Shown: piece after piece, positions 20,531 through 49,680 of the stretch
Numbering within the stretch: position 1 is the stretch's first letter
Layout of the letters: each line of letters begins with the position of its first letter
Source: Aphelocoma coerulescens
Taxonomy: Eukaryota > Chordata > Aves > Passeriformes > Corvidae
Assembly (NCBI RefSeq): GCF_041296385.1
Contig: NC_091015.1
Location: 89,202,004-89,266,003 of the forward strand
Direction of reading: 5' to 3'
Length of the DNA: 64,000 nucleotides
The notes under the pieces: model-generated
The model's input: only the letters and a program-made list of their open reading frames with translations
Told to the model about the DNA's origin: nothing
Databases searched by the model: none
Program-made: the position numbers and the translations under genes

Positions 20531-20702
20531 TTGATGGAGAATATCAGCAAACACAGAAAACTCTGTGAAGCCATCTGGCTTTGGGTCAGTAAAAAGAGAC
20601 ACCTCTTGGGAGCAGAGAATGGGGGACAAGGCAAGACCTGCAGGCGATCCCATTACTGGCCATGCCCTTGATGAGGAGGAACCAGCCTGTGGCAGCTGAG
20701 AA
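20531..20702. other. Spacer between two LTR elements
   Basis: About 170 bp between the solo LTR and the cold-shock-domain element. No gene or repeat boundary was recognised in it. Confidence 0.5.
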
Positions 20703-20708
20703 GGACTG
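20703..20708. repeat. Target-site duplication, left copy (GGACTG)
   Basis: GGACTG lies immediately outside the TG terminus of the left LTR and is identical to 22,914-22,919. This shows that the two LTRs and everything between them entered as one insertion. Confidence 0.85.
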
Positions 20709-20999
20709 TGTTACAATGGGGATAGTGTAACACGCGTACCAAACCAGGAGTCCCGTGGAAAAGAAATATCTATGGATCGATTCTTGCTAGATGTTTCAGA
20801 GATGTTTATTTCTCCAGCCGCATGGCCGGGGCTCTGCTGAGGAACTGCTGCAATCACGGGACCCGAGGGTCCTTGTCCACGCAGCGGAACACAAAACAAC
20901 CAATGGGGAATGAGGCTGACCAGGGGCAGGGAAACCCCGTGCCTCCCCCCCCAGGGCCCCTCTCCCAGGGCTACATGGCAGGGGGAGGAGACCCCGACA
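20709..20999 (-). repeat. 3' LTR of the cold-shock-domain retroelement
   Basis: 291-bp LTR, the 3' copy in minus-strand sense. The polyadenylation signal is the plus-strand TTTATT at 20,805-20,810 and the inverted CCAAT is at 20,900-20,904. The stretch just upstream on the sense strand (21,000-21,020) is only weakly purine-rich, so the polypurine tract is not convincing. Confidence 0.88.
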
Positions 21000-21194
21000 T
21001 TTCACCTGTTTATTTTTAACAAAAGAGATGTAAAACTTAACATTGAAAACAACAAGGACAGTTTCAAAACAAAACAAGCCACCCTCCTGAGTCTTTAAAT
21101 GTCCAAACAGATTCTGTGGAACATCTTTGGGCTGACAGAAGGGAGACAGGACTCTCTGAGCATGCTTTGTGGGGAAACTGAGGCAGGAGAGGGT

Positions 21195-21812
21195 TTAATT
21201 TCTCTTCCCCTTTTCATCCCCCACTTGGCATTGGAAAGGGATTTTTGGGGAAACAATTGGCCAGGGCATGGTTTTATGAGGGAAACAATGGATGAAAAAA
21301 CGGATTGGGAATACACTGGGGGTAATAGGATACAGGGTAAAAGGGAAAGATGGGATTAGGGAAGGGAGACTGTAGAGGGGCTTATAATGGAGATATTGTC
21401 TAACATGACTACAATTTTTAGCATATATACTGCCTTTTACAGGAACACCATCAGGCCCAGTGACCTCCGCTGCCTACAACCCCTTTCTACCTTGTACAAT
21501 TTTGAATTCCACCACCTCTCCATCTCCTAAACTTGGGATGTATTTTTCAGGGTTATTCTTTCTAATAGCAGTTCTATGAACGAATATGTCTTGCTGGTTA
21601 TCACATCTTGTTATAAAACCATAATTTTGTTTAACATTATACCACTTTTCTATTCCTAAAACCTTAATTACAGTGATCTTTTCCTTTTTCTGAGTGGCTG
21701 CTGTTTTCTGTCTCGCTGCGTTCTTGCTTTCTCTTTCGCTCGCTCCTGCGTTGTAATTGCCAGGGCTGCCGGGGCCGCTGGAGCTGCTCGTGCCTGCGTG
21801 CTCTTCCCGGGA
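21195..21812 (-). pseudogene. Y-box-type cold-shock domain frame captured in the retroelement, interrupted by one amber stop
   Basis: One minus-strand frame is open from 21,812 (after a TGA at 21,815-21,813) for 112 codons, is broken by TAG at 21,476-21,474, then stays open for 92 more codons to TAA at 21,197-21,195. From about 21,683 it reads as a Y-box cold-shock domain: KVLG and KWYN at the start, NYGFI (RNP1 region), DIFVH (RNP2 region), TAIRKNNPEKY, GDGEVVEF and, after the amber, VTGPDGVPV and GSIYA. Vertebrate YBX proteins have near-identical landmarks in the same order and spacing. The amber falls where the family usually has Glu. Identity to the YBX domain is roughly 60% by eye, compared from memory. 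The domain binds single-stranded nucleic acid. The basic/aromatic arms that follow in YBX1/2/3 are not recognisable; the 70-odd residues after GSIYA are unlike them. No ATG precedes the domain in this frame, so expression would need splicing, read-through or a lost start. This copy is therefore called broken. Confidence 0.85.
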
Positions 21813-21817
21813 TCATG

Positions 21818-22176
21818 TTTGGGGCTGCATGGGCCTAGCCAGGCCGCACCGCTCAGTTCACCGCGTGTTGCCTCCTCTGGTCGCAGCTGCCAGGCCCCCA
21901 AGCAATGACTCCACCATGCCCTGCTCCAGCACACGTTTCGGCTGGGCACGGCTCCGCTCCACCGCTGCCAGCCGCCGTCCGCAGACCGCCCCTCTCGGTT
22001 GGGCGTTCACGGGGCTCGCTCCACCACGCGCCGCACGGGGCCGGGCAGGCACCGCTGGGTCGCCCCGCTCCCGCCGCCCCTCGCTCAGCTTCCGACACTG
22101 CAGCTCGCGTCGCTCCGCCCACGCGCGGGAACTGCCTCACTGCTGCTCCCAGAATGCTCAGTCCACGTGGCCTGGG
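21818..22176 (-). other. GC-rich, CpG-rich block inside the retroelement
   Basis: Between the 5' ORF and the cold-shock frame lie about 360 bp of strikingly GC- and CpG-rich sequence, in contrast with the AT-rich flanks. It is open in several frames, giving Ala/Arg/Gly/Pro-rich peptides without recognisable domains. Vertebrate YBX genes have GC-rich 5' ends encoding Ala/Pro/Gly-rich N-termini, so this may be the 5' part of the captured transcript. That link is inference. Confidence 0.5.
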
Positions 22177-22518
22177 TCACACGGTCCCTGAGCCAGGCTT
22201 CCCTTCACCAAGACACAGCTGACATTGCTCAACAGTCTCTGTAATTAAATAATATTCACAAAAATATTCTTCCATCAGCATATATTTTGACTCAAAAATT
22301 AACTGGGTCCAAACGGTCTTCCAAAAGTCTTTGGTAAGAATTAAATCCCAAGAAACATAGAAGAAGTTCTTAAGCAACCGTGCCAGGAAGTGTTTCAGTA
22401 CTTTTTGAGCTTGAATTAAGCTAAAATTTACAAATCGTTGTTCGAGAATCTTTTTAAGTTTAAGATAAAAGTCCATATGCGGCTCTGAGAGCCAAGAGTC
22501 TTCCCATGGTTCCTCCAT
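22177..22518 (-). CDS. 113-codon 5' ORF of the retroelement, unrecognised
   Basis: This is the first ORF after the 5' LTR in the element's sense direction. Its ATG lies 121 nt beyond the LTR edge, in context AACTATGG. The product begins MEEPWEDSW and is rich in Leu, Phe, Tyr and Lys, suggesting a helical protein. It has no myristoylation glycine, zinc knuckle or other motif I recognise. Its position is where gag begins in a retrovirus, so a gag N-terminal remnant is one possibility, but I cannot show that. The frame stops at TGA and is open again for about 107 codons into GC-rich sequence. A GTGAGT splice-donor-like motif lies in the leader (22,584-22,579, minus strand). Whether it is translated is unknown. 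Confidence 0.4.
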   Translation of the reverse strand: MEEPWEDSWLSEPHMDFYLKLKKILEQRFVNFSLIQAQKVLKHFLARLLKNFFYVSWDLILTKDFWKTVWTQLIFESKYMLMEEYFCEYYLITETVEQCQLCLGEGKPGSGTV

Positions 22519-22638
22519 AGTTTAGATATGGAATAGCAAAACAAAAACAAGAAGAGGAATCCAAAGTTTCTAGGGTTTACTCACACAAATCAGTCGCTTA
22601 GGGATCGGGGATCGTTCTGCCCACATTACCCACCGTTA

Positions 22639-22913
22639 TGTTGCAGTGGGGATACTGTAACACACGTACCAAACCAGGAGTCCTGTGGAAAAGAAATATA
22701 TATGTGGACCGATTCTTGGTAGATGTTTCAGAGATGTTTATTTCTCCAGCCTCATGGCTGGGCCTCTGCCAAGGAACTGTTACAGTCACAGGACCGAGGG
22801 TCCTTGCCCGCACAGGGAAACACAGAACAACCAATGGGGAACGAGGCTGACCAGAGGCTAGGAAACCCCATCTTCCCCCCAGGGCTACATGGCAGGGGGA
22901 GGAGACCCCGACA
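22639..22913 (-). repeat. 5' LTR of the cold-shock-domain retroelement
   Basis: 275-bp LTR, the 5' copy in the element's minus-strand sense. It has TG...CA termini, an inverted CCAAT (ATTGG on the sense strand, CCAAT at 22,831-22,835 on the plus strand) and AATAAA (plus-strand TTTATT at 22,737-22,742). It aligns along nearly its full length with 20,709-20,999. It lacks a stretch of about 15 bp present in the partner near the C-rich tract. Confidence 0.88.
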
Positions 22914-22919
22914 GGACTG
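22914..22919. repeat. Target-site duplication, right copy (GGACTG)
   Basis: Exact match to 20,703-20,708, immediately after the CA terminus of the right LTR. Confidence 0.85.
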
Positions 22920-25900
22920 GGCTGTGACAGAGATGGTCTAGTGATCATCTAATAAATGCTGGTGGCTGACTTCAGACCATCACCCCATGAAATCATAAAA
23001 ATTCAAAATAACCACCTGTGAAATAGCTCAGGAAAGGGCTTAAATGAGGTCCTGGGCAATCAGAATCATGCCCCAAGGCAGGCTAGGTAGGGACAGTCAG
23101 GGTTAATAGTGCCTTCAGATGTCATACAGCAGTCAAAATAATGAATGTCTTGGACATTTTAACTATGCTTATGCTATGATTTTTGTGTTTGGTTTAGTGT
23201 TACCTAAGCCAGACTTTAGTCCTCCATTCCAGGTCCAAATATTATTTTCATGCGCAAACCCTAAGTCCTAAAAGCTACCATTCACAGATATTTGAGAGAA
23301 GTGTTTAATCTACACATGGATTAAGTACGAAGAGATGCAGTTTGATCCCTAAACTAAAAACATATCAAAAGTATACCCCTTTATACAGTGTACACTGTTA
23401 CAACCACCTGTAACCTGCATCTCTTGCGCCTTAAACTTAGCATGTAAAATGAAAATTACTTGATCACAAAAGTCTGCTTCTAGCAGATGGAAAACTGTAC
23501 CTCATGTTTCTGAGCCAGTGAAACTGGTGAAGCCCAGTAACAGCTATCTCAGCTAAAGAGCTGCCATTGAGAGCTTCCTCATTCCTTCTTTATTCGCTGT
23601 GCCCAGTTCAAGCATCATTTCCAAAAAGTGCTCCAATTAGGAGGTTTGGTAAAGTTTCCAAGTCACATTTCTGTGGGATGAGGAAGTCCAGCATAATGAC
23701 TGTCAGAAACAGACACAGCACATCCATTGAGCTATGAATGCTGCTTCCTCTCCTGCTTTTCTTTGACCACTATTCATTTATTCAGTAAAGAAAGCACTAG
23801 TAACTAGTATTAGCAACTGCTGTGCCTTCAGAATTTGCCACTCCATAGTTCCAGAGATGAAAATCCCCTTTCTCCTTTCACACTGGGTAGGAAACCTGGT
23901 GTCTGTCTCCTCATGCTCTGAGGTGGTTTTGTAAAGCCCAGATACAGCTGAGAAGTTGTTTCAGTAGCTTCAGACACTGCGCATTGAGATGGTGGTTGCC
24001 ATACTCTCTTGTGCATGAAGGACACAGAAGTAGCTGCCCTAGTTATGTCCAAACCACCATCTATCACCCATAGACATCTGCAAATTATTTTGTTTTCTGT
24101 ATAAATGTCCTCATGTCACTTACCCTTGGTCTGGTACTGAGCTTCCACTAACCGTGTGTGGCTTTATGTGTATGCCTTAATGATATTTATTATATATTTA
24201 TTATTTATTGTATCAGTTATTTATTAGTACTTATAGATTTTTTTCCTGAGAGAACTACTGATATCCTTAGTTTTATTCAGCCTCTTTAAATAAATATAAT
24301 TCAAATGTTTCTGAGCATCAAGCAATGGTGATTCATCTGCAGCATTGTAAGTCACTGTGGTTCCCCAGAAAGGGAACAGCAGGGGAGTTATGCATCCATT
24401 CCTAGGCTTTCCCAGTCTCATACTGTACACAAAACTTCCTCAACAATTTAAAAAGACAGAACTGTGATTTAGAGTAACATAGTCATGCTTCCCTTGCTAC
24501 CAGAGGCATAAGAAAAGGACAAAGGACAGAGCAGAGAGAAAGCATGGGTGCATGAAGCCAGTCGTGTCTTAAGTTGTCATGGTTAAACTCAGGAGTATGA
24601 AGATCCAGTGCTCTTCCTAAATGAAATCTGATTTAATCAGCTTGATTAAAATTCCTGATTTGAATCCCTGAGGTAAATAGCTCAGCTCATGCATTAGAGC
24701 TAAACTTTCAACAAGAACATTCTAGTTTAGGAAATGGTTTGAGGTAAAAGAAAGCAAAGCAGTAAACCCAGCCTGGAGGAATGTCTCATCCTCACAGTGG
24801 TCTGGCAGGTTGCTTCCTGGGGGTAGAAGACATAAGCCAGAACTGCAGTACAGGCTTGTGAAATGGAAAATGGAAGGGAGAAACCAGATAACTTCATAGA
24901 AAGTTTCAATCTTAAAATAGAGTTGTTTTAAGCAAGCAGTATCCTGCAGAGAGCAGAGACTGTGTGTGTGCTTATTTCTGCTTCTAAGATTTCTCTGCTG
25001 CCCATCACAGGAGATCTGTATGAACATGATTGCTAAAGGCTGTAATTTAAAACCTAGAACAATGCATTAATAAATCTGACAAAGAACACAATGAGCACAA
25101 GTCAGACTTGGGAACTGCAGCAAATGCTGGAAAGCTGATGTGGCTACAAAAACTTTGTCTCATGACCGCCTGGATTGCTTTTACATGAGTCACCCGACCT
25201 CAGAATGTGGTCCTGCAAGGTCTGGGCTTTCCGAATACCCTTATTGGGGTTTTATTGTTTCTCAGGTTTCACACTGCAGGACTGTCATTCCAGAAAATGA
25301 CAATGGATCTGATGGAAGCATCCCCAGAGGGTGACTAGTGATTCATTTTGAGTGCTGTGATAAAATTGCATGAATATTTTGGTTACGAGTTGAACAGGAT
25401 GCTAATGCGGTGACTACACTTACAGGGACCTCTAATGTGGTATTAAGAAAACCTAGTATATATTTGTGATCATGTATTCACTACATGTTAAACATGTCTG
25501 CATCAGAACAGTAAAAGAGGTCCACAGAGCTAAATCACTGTAAAATGGCTAAACTAAAACCAGAAAAACAATATACTAACTTAAGAGTCCTGATTTACTG
25601 AGAGACATGAAAAGATCACACTTGTTATAACTAACAAAGAATATCCCTTCAGAATATCAGTTCTACCACTGAAGTCAAATCCTAACTTACTCAATTGCTG
25701 GGTCATTAGACTTCAGATTTCAGCCTACACCATGAGGTTTGAATTCTGTAGCCTGCCTAAATCCAGATTTGGGAATTCAATTCTAATCCATCTTGACTTA
25801 TTACCAGCTTCCTACCTACTTTTCTCCCCACAGACCCCAAGACTATATTTTCTTTAATGTCAGAAAGGAAATGTTCTCTTTGAAAATTTCAATCTTATTT

Positions 25901-28321: not shown

Positions 28322-29253
<932 letters not shown>

Positions 29254-48840: not shown

Positions 48841-48848
48841 TCCTTTTC

Positions 48849-48879
<31 letters not shown>

Positions 48880-49680
48880 CTTTTCTTTTCTTTTCTTTTC
48901 TTTTCTTTTCTTTTCTTTTCTTTTCTTTTCTTTTCTTTTCTTTTCTTTTCTTTTCTTTTTTTTCTTTTCTTTTCTTTTCTTTTCTTTTCTTTTCTTTTCT
49001 TTTCTTTTCTTTTCTTTTCTTTTCTTTTCTTTTCTTTCCTTTTCTTTCCTTTTCTTTCCTTTTCTTTCCTTTTCTTTCCTTTTCTTTCCTTTTCTTTCCT
49101 TTTCTTTCCTTTTCTTTCCTTTTCTTTCCTTTTCTTTCCTTTTCTTTCCTTTTCTTTCCTTTTCTTTCCTTTTCTTTCCTTTTCTTTCCTTTTCTTTTCT
49201 TTTCTTTTCTTTTCTTTTCTTTTCTTTTCTTTTCTTTTCTTTTCTTTTCTTTTCTTTTCTTTTCTTTTCTTTTCTTTTCTTTTCTTTTCTTTTCTTTTCT
49301 TTTCTTTTCTTTTCTTTTCTTTTCTTTTCTTTTCTTTTCTTTTCTTTTCTTTTCTTTTCTTTTCTTTTTTCTCTCTTCTCCCTTCCCTTCCCTTCTCCCT
49401 TCTCCCTTCTCCCTTCTCCCTTCTCCCTTCTCCCTTCTCCCTTCCCTTCTCCCTTCTCCCTTCTCCCTTCTCCCTTCTCCCTTCTCCCTTCTCCCTTCTC
49501 CCTTCTCCCTTCTCCCTTCTCCCTTCCCTTCCCTTCCCTTCCCTTCCCTTCCCTTCCCTTCCCTTCCCTTCCCTTCCCTTCCCTTCCCTTCCCTTCCCTT
49601 CCCTTCCCTTCCCTTCCCTTCCCTTCCCTTCCCTTCCCTTCCCTTCCCTTCCCTTCCCTTCCCTTCCCTTCCCTTCTCTT
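48841..49680 (+). repeat. Large zoned pyrimidine array: (TTTTC), (TTTTCTTTCC), (CCCTTCT), (CCCTT)
   Basis: About 840 bp contain almost only C and T on the plus strand. The blocks are (TTTTC)n to about 49,030 with one longer T-run near 48,958, sixteen perfect 10-mers TTTCTTTCCT at 49,031-49,190, (TTTTC)n again to about 49,368, a 7-mer block (CCCTTCT)n at about 49,390-49,522 with one interruption near 49,445, and (CCCTT)n to about 49,675. Read on the BASP1 sense strand the units are AAAAG, AAAGG and AAGGG. The 337- to 440-codon frames here are repeat products. Confidence 0.97.

What the first reader, a model, noticed from the sequence alone, without database searches (positions are those of the whole stretch)
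20709..22913. A retroviral-type element that appears to have captured a Y-box cold-shock domain
Seen: paired LTRs, an exact GGACTG 6-bp target duplication, and an interior of only 1.64 kb without recognisable gag/pol/env. In the element's sense strand the interior encodes KVLG, KWYN, NYGFI, DIFVH, TAIRKNNPEKY, GDGEVVEF and VTGPDGVPV in the order and spacing of a YBX cold-shock domain. Known: YBX proteins bind mRNA and single-stranded DNA, and retroviruses can transduce host mRNAs. Inference: this is a non-autonomous endogenous retrovirus family that carries a host RNA-binding module, perhaps to help packaging, RNA stability or promoter activation. I do not know of a described family like this, but I cannot search.
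Basis: partly seen in the sequence, partly recalled or inferred. Interest (0 to 1): 0.88.

Follow-up and report, generated by a model that had tools for sequence, protein, structure and literature searches.

The report
Jay retrotransposon carrying a Y-box domain

Summary
The window copy (20,709-22,913, sense minus) is an old, broken member of a multi-copy LTR family. Of 48 distinct copies fetched, 47 carry the Y-box cold-shock domain (CSD); 28 of 36 testable copies have a perfect 6-bp target duplication, all different. In 10 of 45 copies one open frame of 431-447 aa joins an orphan N-terminal domain, Arg/Pro-rich linker, CSD and Pro/Phe/Tyr-rich tail. Variants shared between copies are depleted of amino-acid changes in the CSD (p=4e-5) and N-terminal domain (p=0.001), less so in the linker (p=0.02). 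A second subfamily keeps the CSD (dN/dS 0.25 against the first); one of its copies has identical LTRs. The genome is almost surely Aphelocoma coerulescens; New Caledonian crow has such proteins. Published internal PCR primers for the 2.25-kb NDP insertion of hooded crows match this family. Best mechanism, inferred: a cis-acting RNA-binding protein that escorts the element's own RNA into a helper's particles. My searches found no description in print.

The parts
22639..22913 (-). 5' LTR (sense strand is minus), TGTC...AACA
20709..20999 (-). 3' LTR
20703..20708 (.). target-site duplication GGACTG
22914..22919 (.). target-site duplication GGACTG
22519..22638 (-). leader before the frame; holds the site of published primer P_R_F_1 (1 mismatch here)
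22183..22518 (-). N-terminal domain, about 112 aa, in the position of gag matrix; no convincing Pfam or PDB relative
21693..22182 (-). G+C-rich linker, Arg/Pro/Ala-rich in open copies, weakly constrained
21441..21690 (-). Y-box cold-shock domain; interrupted by an in-frame stop in this copy
21217..21440 (-). Pro/Phe/Tyr-rich C-terminal tail; in the family it holds the site of published primer P_L_R_2, read in frame as HPWFPSQ (3 mismatches in this copy)
21000..21216 (-). region between the tail and the 3' LTR, ending in a purine-rich stretch
20900..20904 (-). ATTGG (inverted CCAAT, Y-box core) in the 3' LTR, kept in 84% of 88 LTRs (about the 78th percentile of the 5-mers there) and at the same place in one LTR of the second subfamily
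20805..20810 (-). AATAAA in the 3' LTR, kept in 95% of 88 LTRs

Best explanation
A corvid family of non-autonomous ERVK-like LTR retrotransposons whose only long protein is a fusion of an orphan N-terminal domain, a basic linker, a Y-box cold-shock domain taken from a spliced host YBX messenger, and an aromatic/proline-rich tail. SHOWN: family structure, open frame, conservation of the CSD and of its nucleic-acid-contact residues, purifying selection, recent insertion. INFERRED: the CSD binds the element's own RNA, and the N-terminal domain and/or tail attach that complex to particles of a helper retrovirus that supplies capsid, reverse transcriptase and integrase. The protein must act mainly in cis, because selection on the coding sequence of an element that borrows another's enzymes is otherwise hard to explain. 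The CSD would do the work that nucleocapsid does in Gag.
For: 47 of 48 copies carry the CSD; among the 27 fetched by the 5' region alone, 26 do. Open frames (stop to stop) of 431-447 aa in 10 of 45 copies; of 150 scored N-terminal hits, 67 lie in frames of 429 aa or more and none over 475. Shared (3 or more copies) against single-copy variants, synonymous/non-synonymous with stops: CSD 27/17 vs 21/67, p=4.2e-5; N-terminal 20/21 vs 26/97, p=0.0012; linker 86/144 vs 64/170, p=0.023. Shared CSD variants are more constrained than shared linker variants (p=0.004). W, F, F, H of the CSD kept in 46, 46, 46 and 47 of 47 copies. First against second subfamily CSD: dS 0.94, dN 0.24. The CSD is uninterrupted, whereas two CSD-coding exons of host YBX1 lie about 220 bp apart. 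Second-subfamily copy: 0 of 293 LTR differences, perfect 6-bp TSD. YB-1 already works with a betaretroviral Gag: it co-localises with MMTV Gag and RNA and its knockdown lowers particle output (PMC4486188 passages, citing Bann 2014).
Against: No expression, binding or particle data. The N-terminal domain has no convincing similarity to any Gag matrix: only sub-threshold Pfam hits to unrelated families (E 0.13 and 0.013) and no useful PDB match; read from its first ATG it begins MEE-, without the glycine that myristoylation needs; a gag origin rests on position only. No helper was identified: sharing of LTR or leader with a pol-bearing ERV was not tested. CATC, a YB-1 RNA motif by recall, is not enriched on the sense strand (7.6 vs 7.4 per copy). 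Among copies fetched by the 5' region the tests are weaker (CSD p=0.063, 26 copies; N-terminal p=0.22, 27 copies), and shared N-terminal against shared linker variants is not significant (p=0.22).
Confidence: 0.55

Rival explanations
1. The protein works as an mRNP or translation factor, as host YBX does: it coats, stabilises and hides the element's RNA (from decay or piRNA silencing) in germ cells, and packaging needs no special help.
For: This is what Y-box proteins are known for (recalled). The aromatic/Pro-rich tail could drive condensation. Selection on the CSD fits equally well.
Against: Does not explain why a separate N-terminal domain in the place of gag matrix is also constrained (ratio 0.28), nor obviously gives cis-preference.
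Confidence: 0.27
2. The protein is a trans-activator of its own LTR through the ATTGG (Y-box/CCAAT) core.
For: ATTGG lies at LTR position 95-96 in both subfamilies (one LTR seen of the second) and is kept in 84% of 88 LTRs of the first.
Against: CCAAT boxes are common in promoters (recalled), and the motif is only at about the 78th percentile of conservation in the LTR. A trans-acting factor gives no cis-advantage to the copy that encodes it.
Confidence: 0.08
3. The CSD is a passive passenger (filler) and the constraint is an artefact of subfamily structure or of sequence context.
For: Copies were fetched by similarity to these regions, and the linker is G+C-rich, so it may mutate faster. In the subset fetched by the 5' region the tests do not reach 0.05.
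Against: Non-synonymous and synonymous sites of the same region are compared; single-copy variants of the same copies show no such constraint; the two subfamilies' CSDs differ at dN/dS 0.25 (0.32 over a 44-codon stretch); open frames of over 430 aa persist in many copies.
Confidence: 0.05
4. A single processed YBX pseudogene landed in one ERV copy.
For: None remaining.
Against: CSD in 47 of 48 copies at different target sites.
Confidence: 0.005

Closest known systems
corCorLTRK1b, the ERVK subfamily of the 2.25-kb insertion 20 kb upstream of NDP in hooded crows (Weissensteiner et al. 2020, PMC7341801; abstract, passages and section 24 seen)
   Same: Total length (most copies here 2.19-2.28 kb), LTR of 296 bp (here mostly 270-298), both internal PCR primers mostly at the expected places (0 mismatches in 17 and 9 of 45 copies, at most 2 in 41 of 45 each; the four flank primers 6 or more) and product geometry. 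P_L_R_2 reads HPWFPSQ in the frame of the CSD protein.
   Different: Cold shock, Y-box, YBX and gag do not occur in that paper's main text. I have not seen the insertion's own sequence. The one second-subfamily copy seen does not match the primers (7-9 mismatches).
Vertebrate Y-box proteins YBX1/YBX2 (CSD, PF00313)
   Same: CSD with contact residues and the following GPGGxPVxGS stretch; PDB matches of the second subfamily 5e-43 to YBX2 and 1.9e-42 to zebrafish YB-1.
   Different: Element CSDs group apart from the YBX1/2/3 rows used, with P0030 and P0012 (support 96/92; P0012 has a long branch, so its place is unsure). The stretch after the CSD differs: a Pro/Phe/Tyr-rich tail.
Use of host YB-1 by MMTV Gag (PMC4486188, passages seen)
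   Same: A Y-box protein helping a betaretrovirus assemble.
   Different: There the host protein is recruited; here the element encodes the domain.
Non-autonomous LTR elements that encode only a gag-like protein (plant TR-GAG; recalled, not read)
   Same: LTRs, no pol, one protein.
   Different: Here the protein carries a captured host RNA-binding domain.
Defective transforming retroviruses with gag-host gene fusions (v-onc; recalled)
   Same: Host coding sequence fused behind a gag-position N-terminus.
   Different: Here the fusion is multiplied in the germline, ancient, selected, and involves an RNA-binding domain.

Membership tests
LTR retrotransposon / endogenous retrovirus | paired LTRs with TG...CA ends | tested here: met
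LTR retrotransposon / endogenous retrovirus | target-site duplication, different per copy | tested here: met
   28 of 36 testable copies perfect 6 bp, 6 with one mismatch, 1 with two, 1 (L037) not found at the assumed LTR edge; the 28 all different
LTR retrotransposon / endogenous retrovirus | primer-binding site matching a tRNA | tested here: inconclusive
   sequence after the 5' LTR printed for ten copies; no tRNA recognised by eye and no tRNA comparison run
ERVK / class II ERV | class II pol in the same element | tested here: not met
   interior 1.6 kb in the window copy; no pol in the four window pieces scanned with Pfam. The class is inferred from the 6-bp TSD and the ERVK name of the matching crow insertion
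ERVK / class II ERV | betaretroviral matrix domain (Gag_p10, PF02337) | tested here: not met
   the genome does hold PF02337 matches elsewhere
Y-box cold-shock domain | CSD family match and YBX-specific similarity | tested here: met
Y-box cold-shock domain | nucleic-acid-contact aromatic/His residues (positions recalled) | tested here: met
Y-box cold-shock domain | binding of RNA or single-stranded DNA | not testable with these tools
corCorLTRK1b family | sequence identity to the named repeat | tested here: inconclusive
   only primers, lengths and geometry could be compared; all agree

The most novel reading that the evidence does not exclude
A retroelement lineage replaced the RNA-binding (nucleocapsid) part of Gag by a captured host Y-box domain and so became a self-recognising hitch-hiker: its one protein binds the RNA that encodes it and escorts it into a helper's particles. 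It has apparently done so since before Corvus and Aphelocoma parted, inserted very recently in the jay, and one of its insertions lies at the NDP plumage locus of hooded crows, which would then carry this frame.
Probability: 0.35. Interest if true: 0.92.

Novelty: new variant of a known kind. Interest (0 to 1): 0.82.

Why it matters
Non-autonomous LTR elements are mostly thought of as RNA-level parasites without a protein of their own (recalled). Here a captured host RNA-binding domain has stayed coding through two diverged subfamilies, which makes the question of how such elements favour their own RNA testable with natural sequences. The family also appears to be the one whose insertion upstream of NDP is a leading candidate for plumage divergence between hooded and carrion crows, so its promoter, protein and silencing bear on a much-studied case of speciation. 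Its density on W-like scaffolds bears on the W-refugium hypothesis.

Tried and rejected
Rejected: single-copy pseudogene; CSD as a chance motif; N-terminal domain as a recognisable Gag_p10 matrix. PDB searches with the N-terminal domain gave only a laminin at E=0.41 (first subfamily) and, for the second subfamily, mainly maltose-binding-protein entries and fusions among the 60 shown of 250, best E 0.0017, which I take as chance. Tried without result: CATC enrichment; Rfam on 20600-23000 at gathering thresholds, nothing; host YBX2 by the C-terminal part of the human protein, nothing (without a positive control this shows nothing); further copies of the family in the window by blastn and tblastn with its pieces, none. 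Donor paralogue left open: subfamily 2 has YBX2-like residues, the relative P0030 keeps a YBX1-like stretch after the CSD, and the tree does not place the donor.

Full report
1. The observation. The window holds a 2,205-bp element on the minus strand with two LTRs (83% identical), TGTC...AACA ends and a GGACTG duplication. Its frame 21474-21812 matches the Pfam cold-shock domain at 3.1e-16 and a human YB-1 chain at 4.5e-25. Pfam found no gag, pol or env in the four window pieces scanned. The CSD match is far beyond chance.

2. It is a family. A search of the window's own genome with the CSD region scored 40 of 1189 candidates: the window copy itself and 39 others at 89-92% identity. The 5' interior again gave 40 scored of 1191, the other 39 at 93-95%. 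I fetched 48 distinct copies (duplicates between the two lists removed; 19 of the 40 copies could not be fetched at full flank). 47 have the CSD over at least 90% of its length and all 48 have the N-terminal region; in the subset fetched without using the CSD, 26 of 27 have it. The exception is L038, whose fetched stretch holds no 3' LTR either. 45 of 48 show both LTRs in the fetched stretch, one of them (L055) in a nested cluster, and all 45 have the CSD. Of 36 copies whose both ends could be tested, 28 have a perfect 6-bp target duplication, six have one mismatch, one has two, and one (L037) none at the assumed LTR edge. The 28 all differ, so these are independent insertions.

3. It is a coding family. 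In 10 of 45 copies one sense frame (stop to stop) of 431-447 aa runs through most of the interior. Of 150 scored N-terminal matches (2071 candidates), 67 lie in frames of 429 aa or more, and none exceeds 475. In the copy L011, used as frame reference, the order is: N-terminal domain of 112 aa, linker of 167 aa, CSD of 84 aa, tail of 75 aa. The window copy is an old member with a broken frame and the second-highest LTR divergence of 44 copies (K=0.127).

4. Selection. I compared variants shared by three or more copies (they arose while the lineage was active) with variants seen in one copy (mostly after insertion); variants in two copies, and codons filled in fewer than 70% of copies, were left out. 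Synonymous/non-synonymous counts, stops included: CSD (47 copies) 27/17 shared and 21/67 single, p=4.2e-5; N-terminal (48) 20/21 and 26/97, p=0.0012; linker (43) 86/144 and 64/170, p=0.023; tail (45) 12/18 and 23/63, p=0.25. Split by how copies were found, the CSD gives p=0.063 (26 copies, 5' set) and 0.0037 (21, CSD set), the N-terminal domain 0.22 (27) and 0.0074 (21). Shared CSD variants differ from shared linker variants (p=0.004), shared N-terminal ones do not (p=0.22). Pooled pairwise pN/pS is 0.25-0.33 for the CSD, 0.28-0.41 for the N-terminal domain, 0.64-0.67 for the linker and 0.30-0.62 for the tail. The four contact residues (positions recalled) are kept in 46, 46, 46 and 47 of 47 copies.

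5. A second subfamily. A crow protein (P0003) with a different CSD led to 150 scored matches (6590 candidates) at 87-92% in the jay; 64 of 150 lie in frames of 449 aa or more and 30 in frames of exactly 463 aa. Three small pieces of one such copy show LTRs of 293 bp without a difference, a GCTACC duplication, an N-terminal domain 37% identical to the first subfamily's, and a CSD 63% identical. Its N-terminal domain matches 17 of 150 scored places, itself included, at 100%, all in frames of 463 or 474 aa; three on contig C645 are evenly spaced and may be one duplicated insertion. The CSDs of the two subfamilies differ at dS 0.94 and dN 0.24 (median over 47 first-subfamily copies against one second-subfamily copy); over a 44-codon stretch the figures are 0.78 and 0.25. 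With the substitution rate used in PMC7341801, identical LTRs mean an age below about 0.32 My.

6. Where it came from. In the host YBX1 gene two CSD-coding exons lie about 220 bp apart; in the element the domain is continuous, so a spliced messenger was captured. Synonymous sites between host YBX1 and either subfamily are saturated (pS 0.78 and 0.77 over 44 codons), so the capture, if from YBX1, is old. A tree of 26 rows places the element CSDs together (83/88), and with P0030 (unnamed organism) and P0012 (Zonotrichia albicollis, long branch, place unsure) in a group supported 96/92 against the YBX rows. P0030 also shares the FPFYPIPN tail motif with the second subfamily. The donor paralogue is undecided.

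7. Whose genome. Protein P0028, named Aphelocoma coerulescens, lies on a contig of 4,676,095 bases, the length of C36; the published assembly is 1.33 Gb (PMC11631490 passages), as is G000. 18 of 40 and 26 of 40 matches lie on C34, C35, C36 and C38, contigs picked after seeing the lists, which make up 2.9% of the genome. C34 has the size (about 21 Mb) given for the largest W scaffold; the W assignment of these four is my inference. New Caledonian crow proteins share the N-terminal domain and the CSD; the search with the first-subfamily N-terminal domain returned four proteins, all crow.

8. The crow plumage insertion. PMC7341801 reports a 2.25-kb insertion (subfamily corCorLTRK1b, LTR 296 bp) upstream of NDP and gives primers. 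The two primers inside the insertion match the first subfamily: P_R_F_1 with no mismatch in 17 of 45 copies, P_L_R_2 in 9 of 45, at most two in 41 of 45 for each, mostly at the right places; shuffled primers reach 5-9 mismatches (120 trials on three copies) and the four flank primers 6 or more. P_L_R_2 lies in the coding tail, in frame as HPWFPSQ. The one second-subfamily copy does not match. So the NDP insertion very probably belongs to this family and, at 2.25 kb, very probably carries the CSD region. I did not see its sequence.

9. How it most likely works. The element has no enzymes, so it needs a helper. Selection on its protein then implies that the protein mainly serves the RNA that encodes it. 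A single-strand RNA-binding domain is the simplest means. A betaretroviral Gag is already known to work with host YB-1 (PMC4486188 passages); for HIV I saw only the start of an abstract (PMC6040738). I therefore favour an escort role in packaging or assembly over pure RNA stabilisation or LTR activation. I have no binding, expression or particle evidence.

10. Novelty. Paper searches for this: (listings only). Term searches in the main text of PMC7341801, PMC11009239, PMC8310711, PMC6523648 and PMC11631490 found no cold-shock or Y-box mention. 'corCorLTRK1b' occurs in one paper of the library. The library lacks most subscription papers and holds no preprints.

Noticed in passing
P0003 (Corvus moneduloides protein): N-terminal domain of the first subfamily (88%) with a CSD of the second: either a recombinant between subfamilies or a gene model that joins two elements.
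   Followed up: partly
P0012 (Zonotrichia albicollis) and P0030 (unnamed, 1408-base contig): Y-box-derived proteins that group with the element CSDs (P0012 on a long branch); P0030 shares the tail motif. They may mark an older or wider songbird lineage of the same capture.
   Followed up: partly
G000 contigs C645, C29, C90, C647: Three second-subfamily copies on C645 at equal spacing of about 17.7 kb, probably a duplicated segment holding the element; C29, C90 and C647 show several first-subfamily hits with the same 242-aa frame.
   Followed up: no
G000: 34 of 50 Gag_p10 (betaretroviral matrix) matches are over the family cut-off, 29 of them on C34-C38; possible helpers. The loci could not be cut out.
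   Followed up: no
window 28324-29252 and 48843-49680: Long GAAA and CTTTT/TTCTCCC/TCCCT simple-repeat arrays.
   Followed up: no
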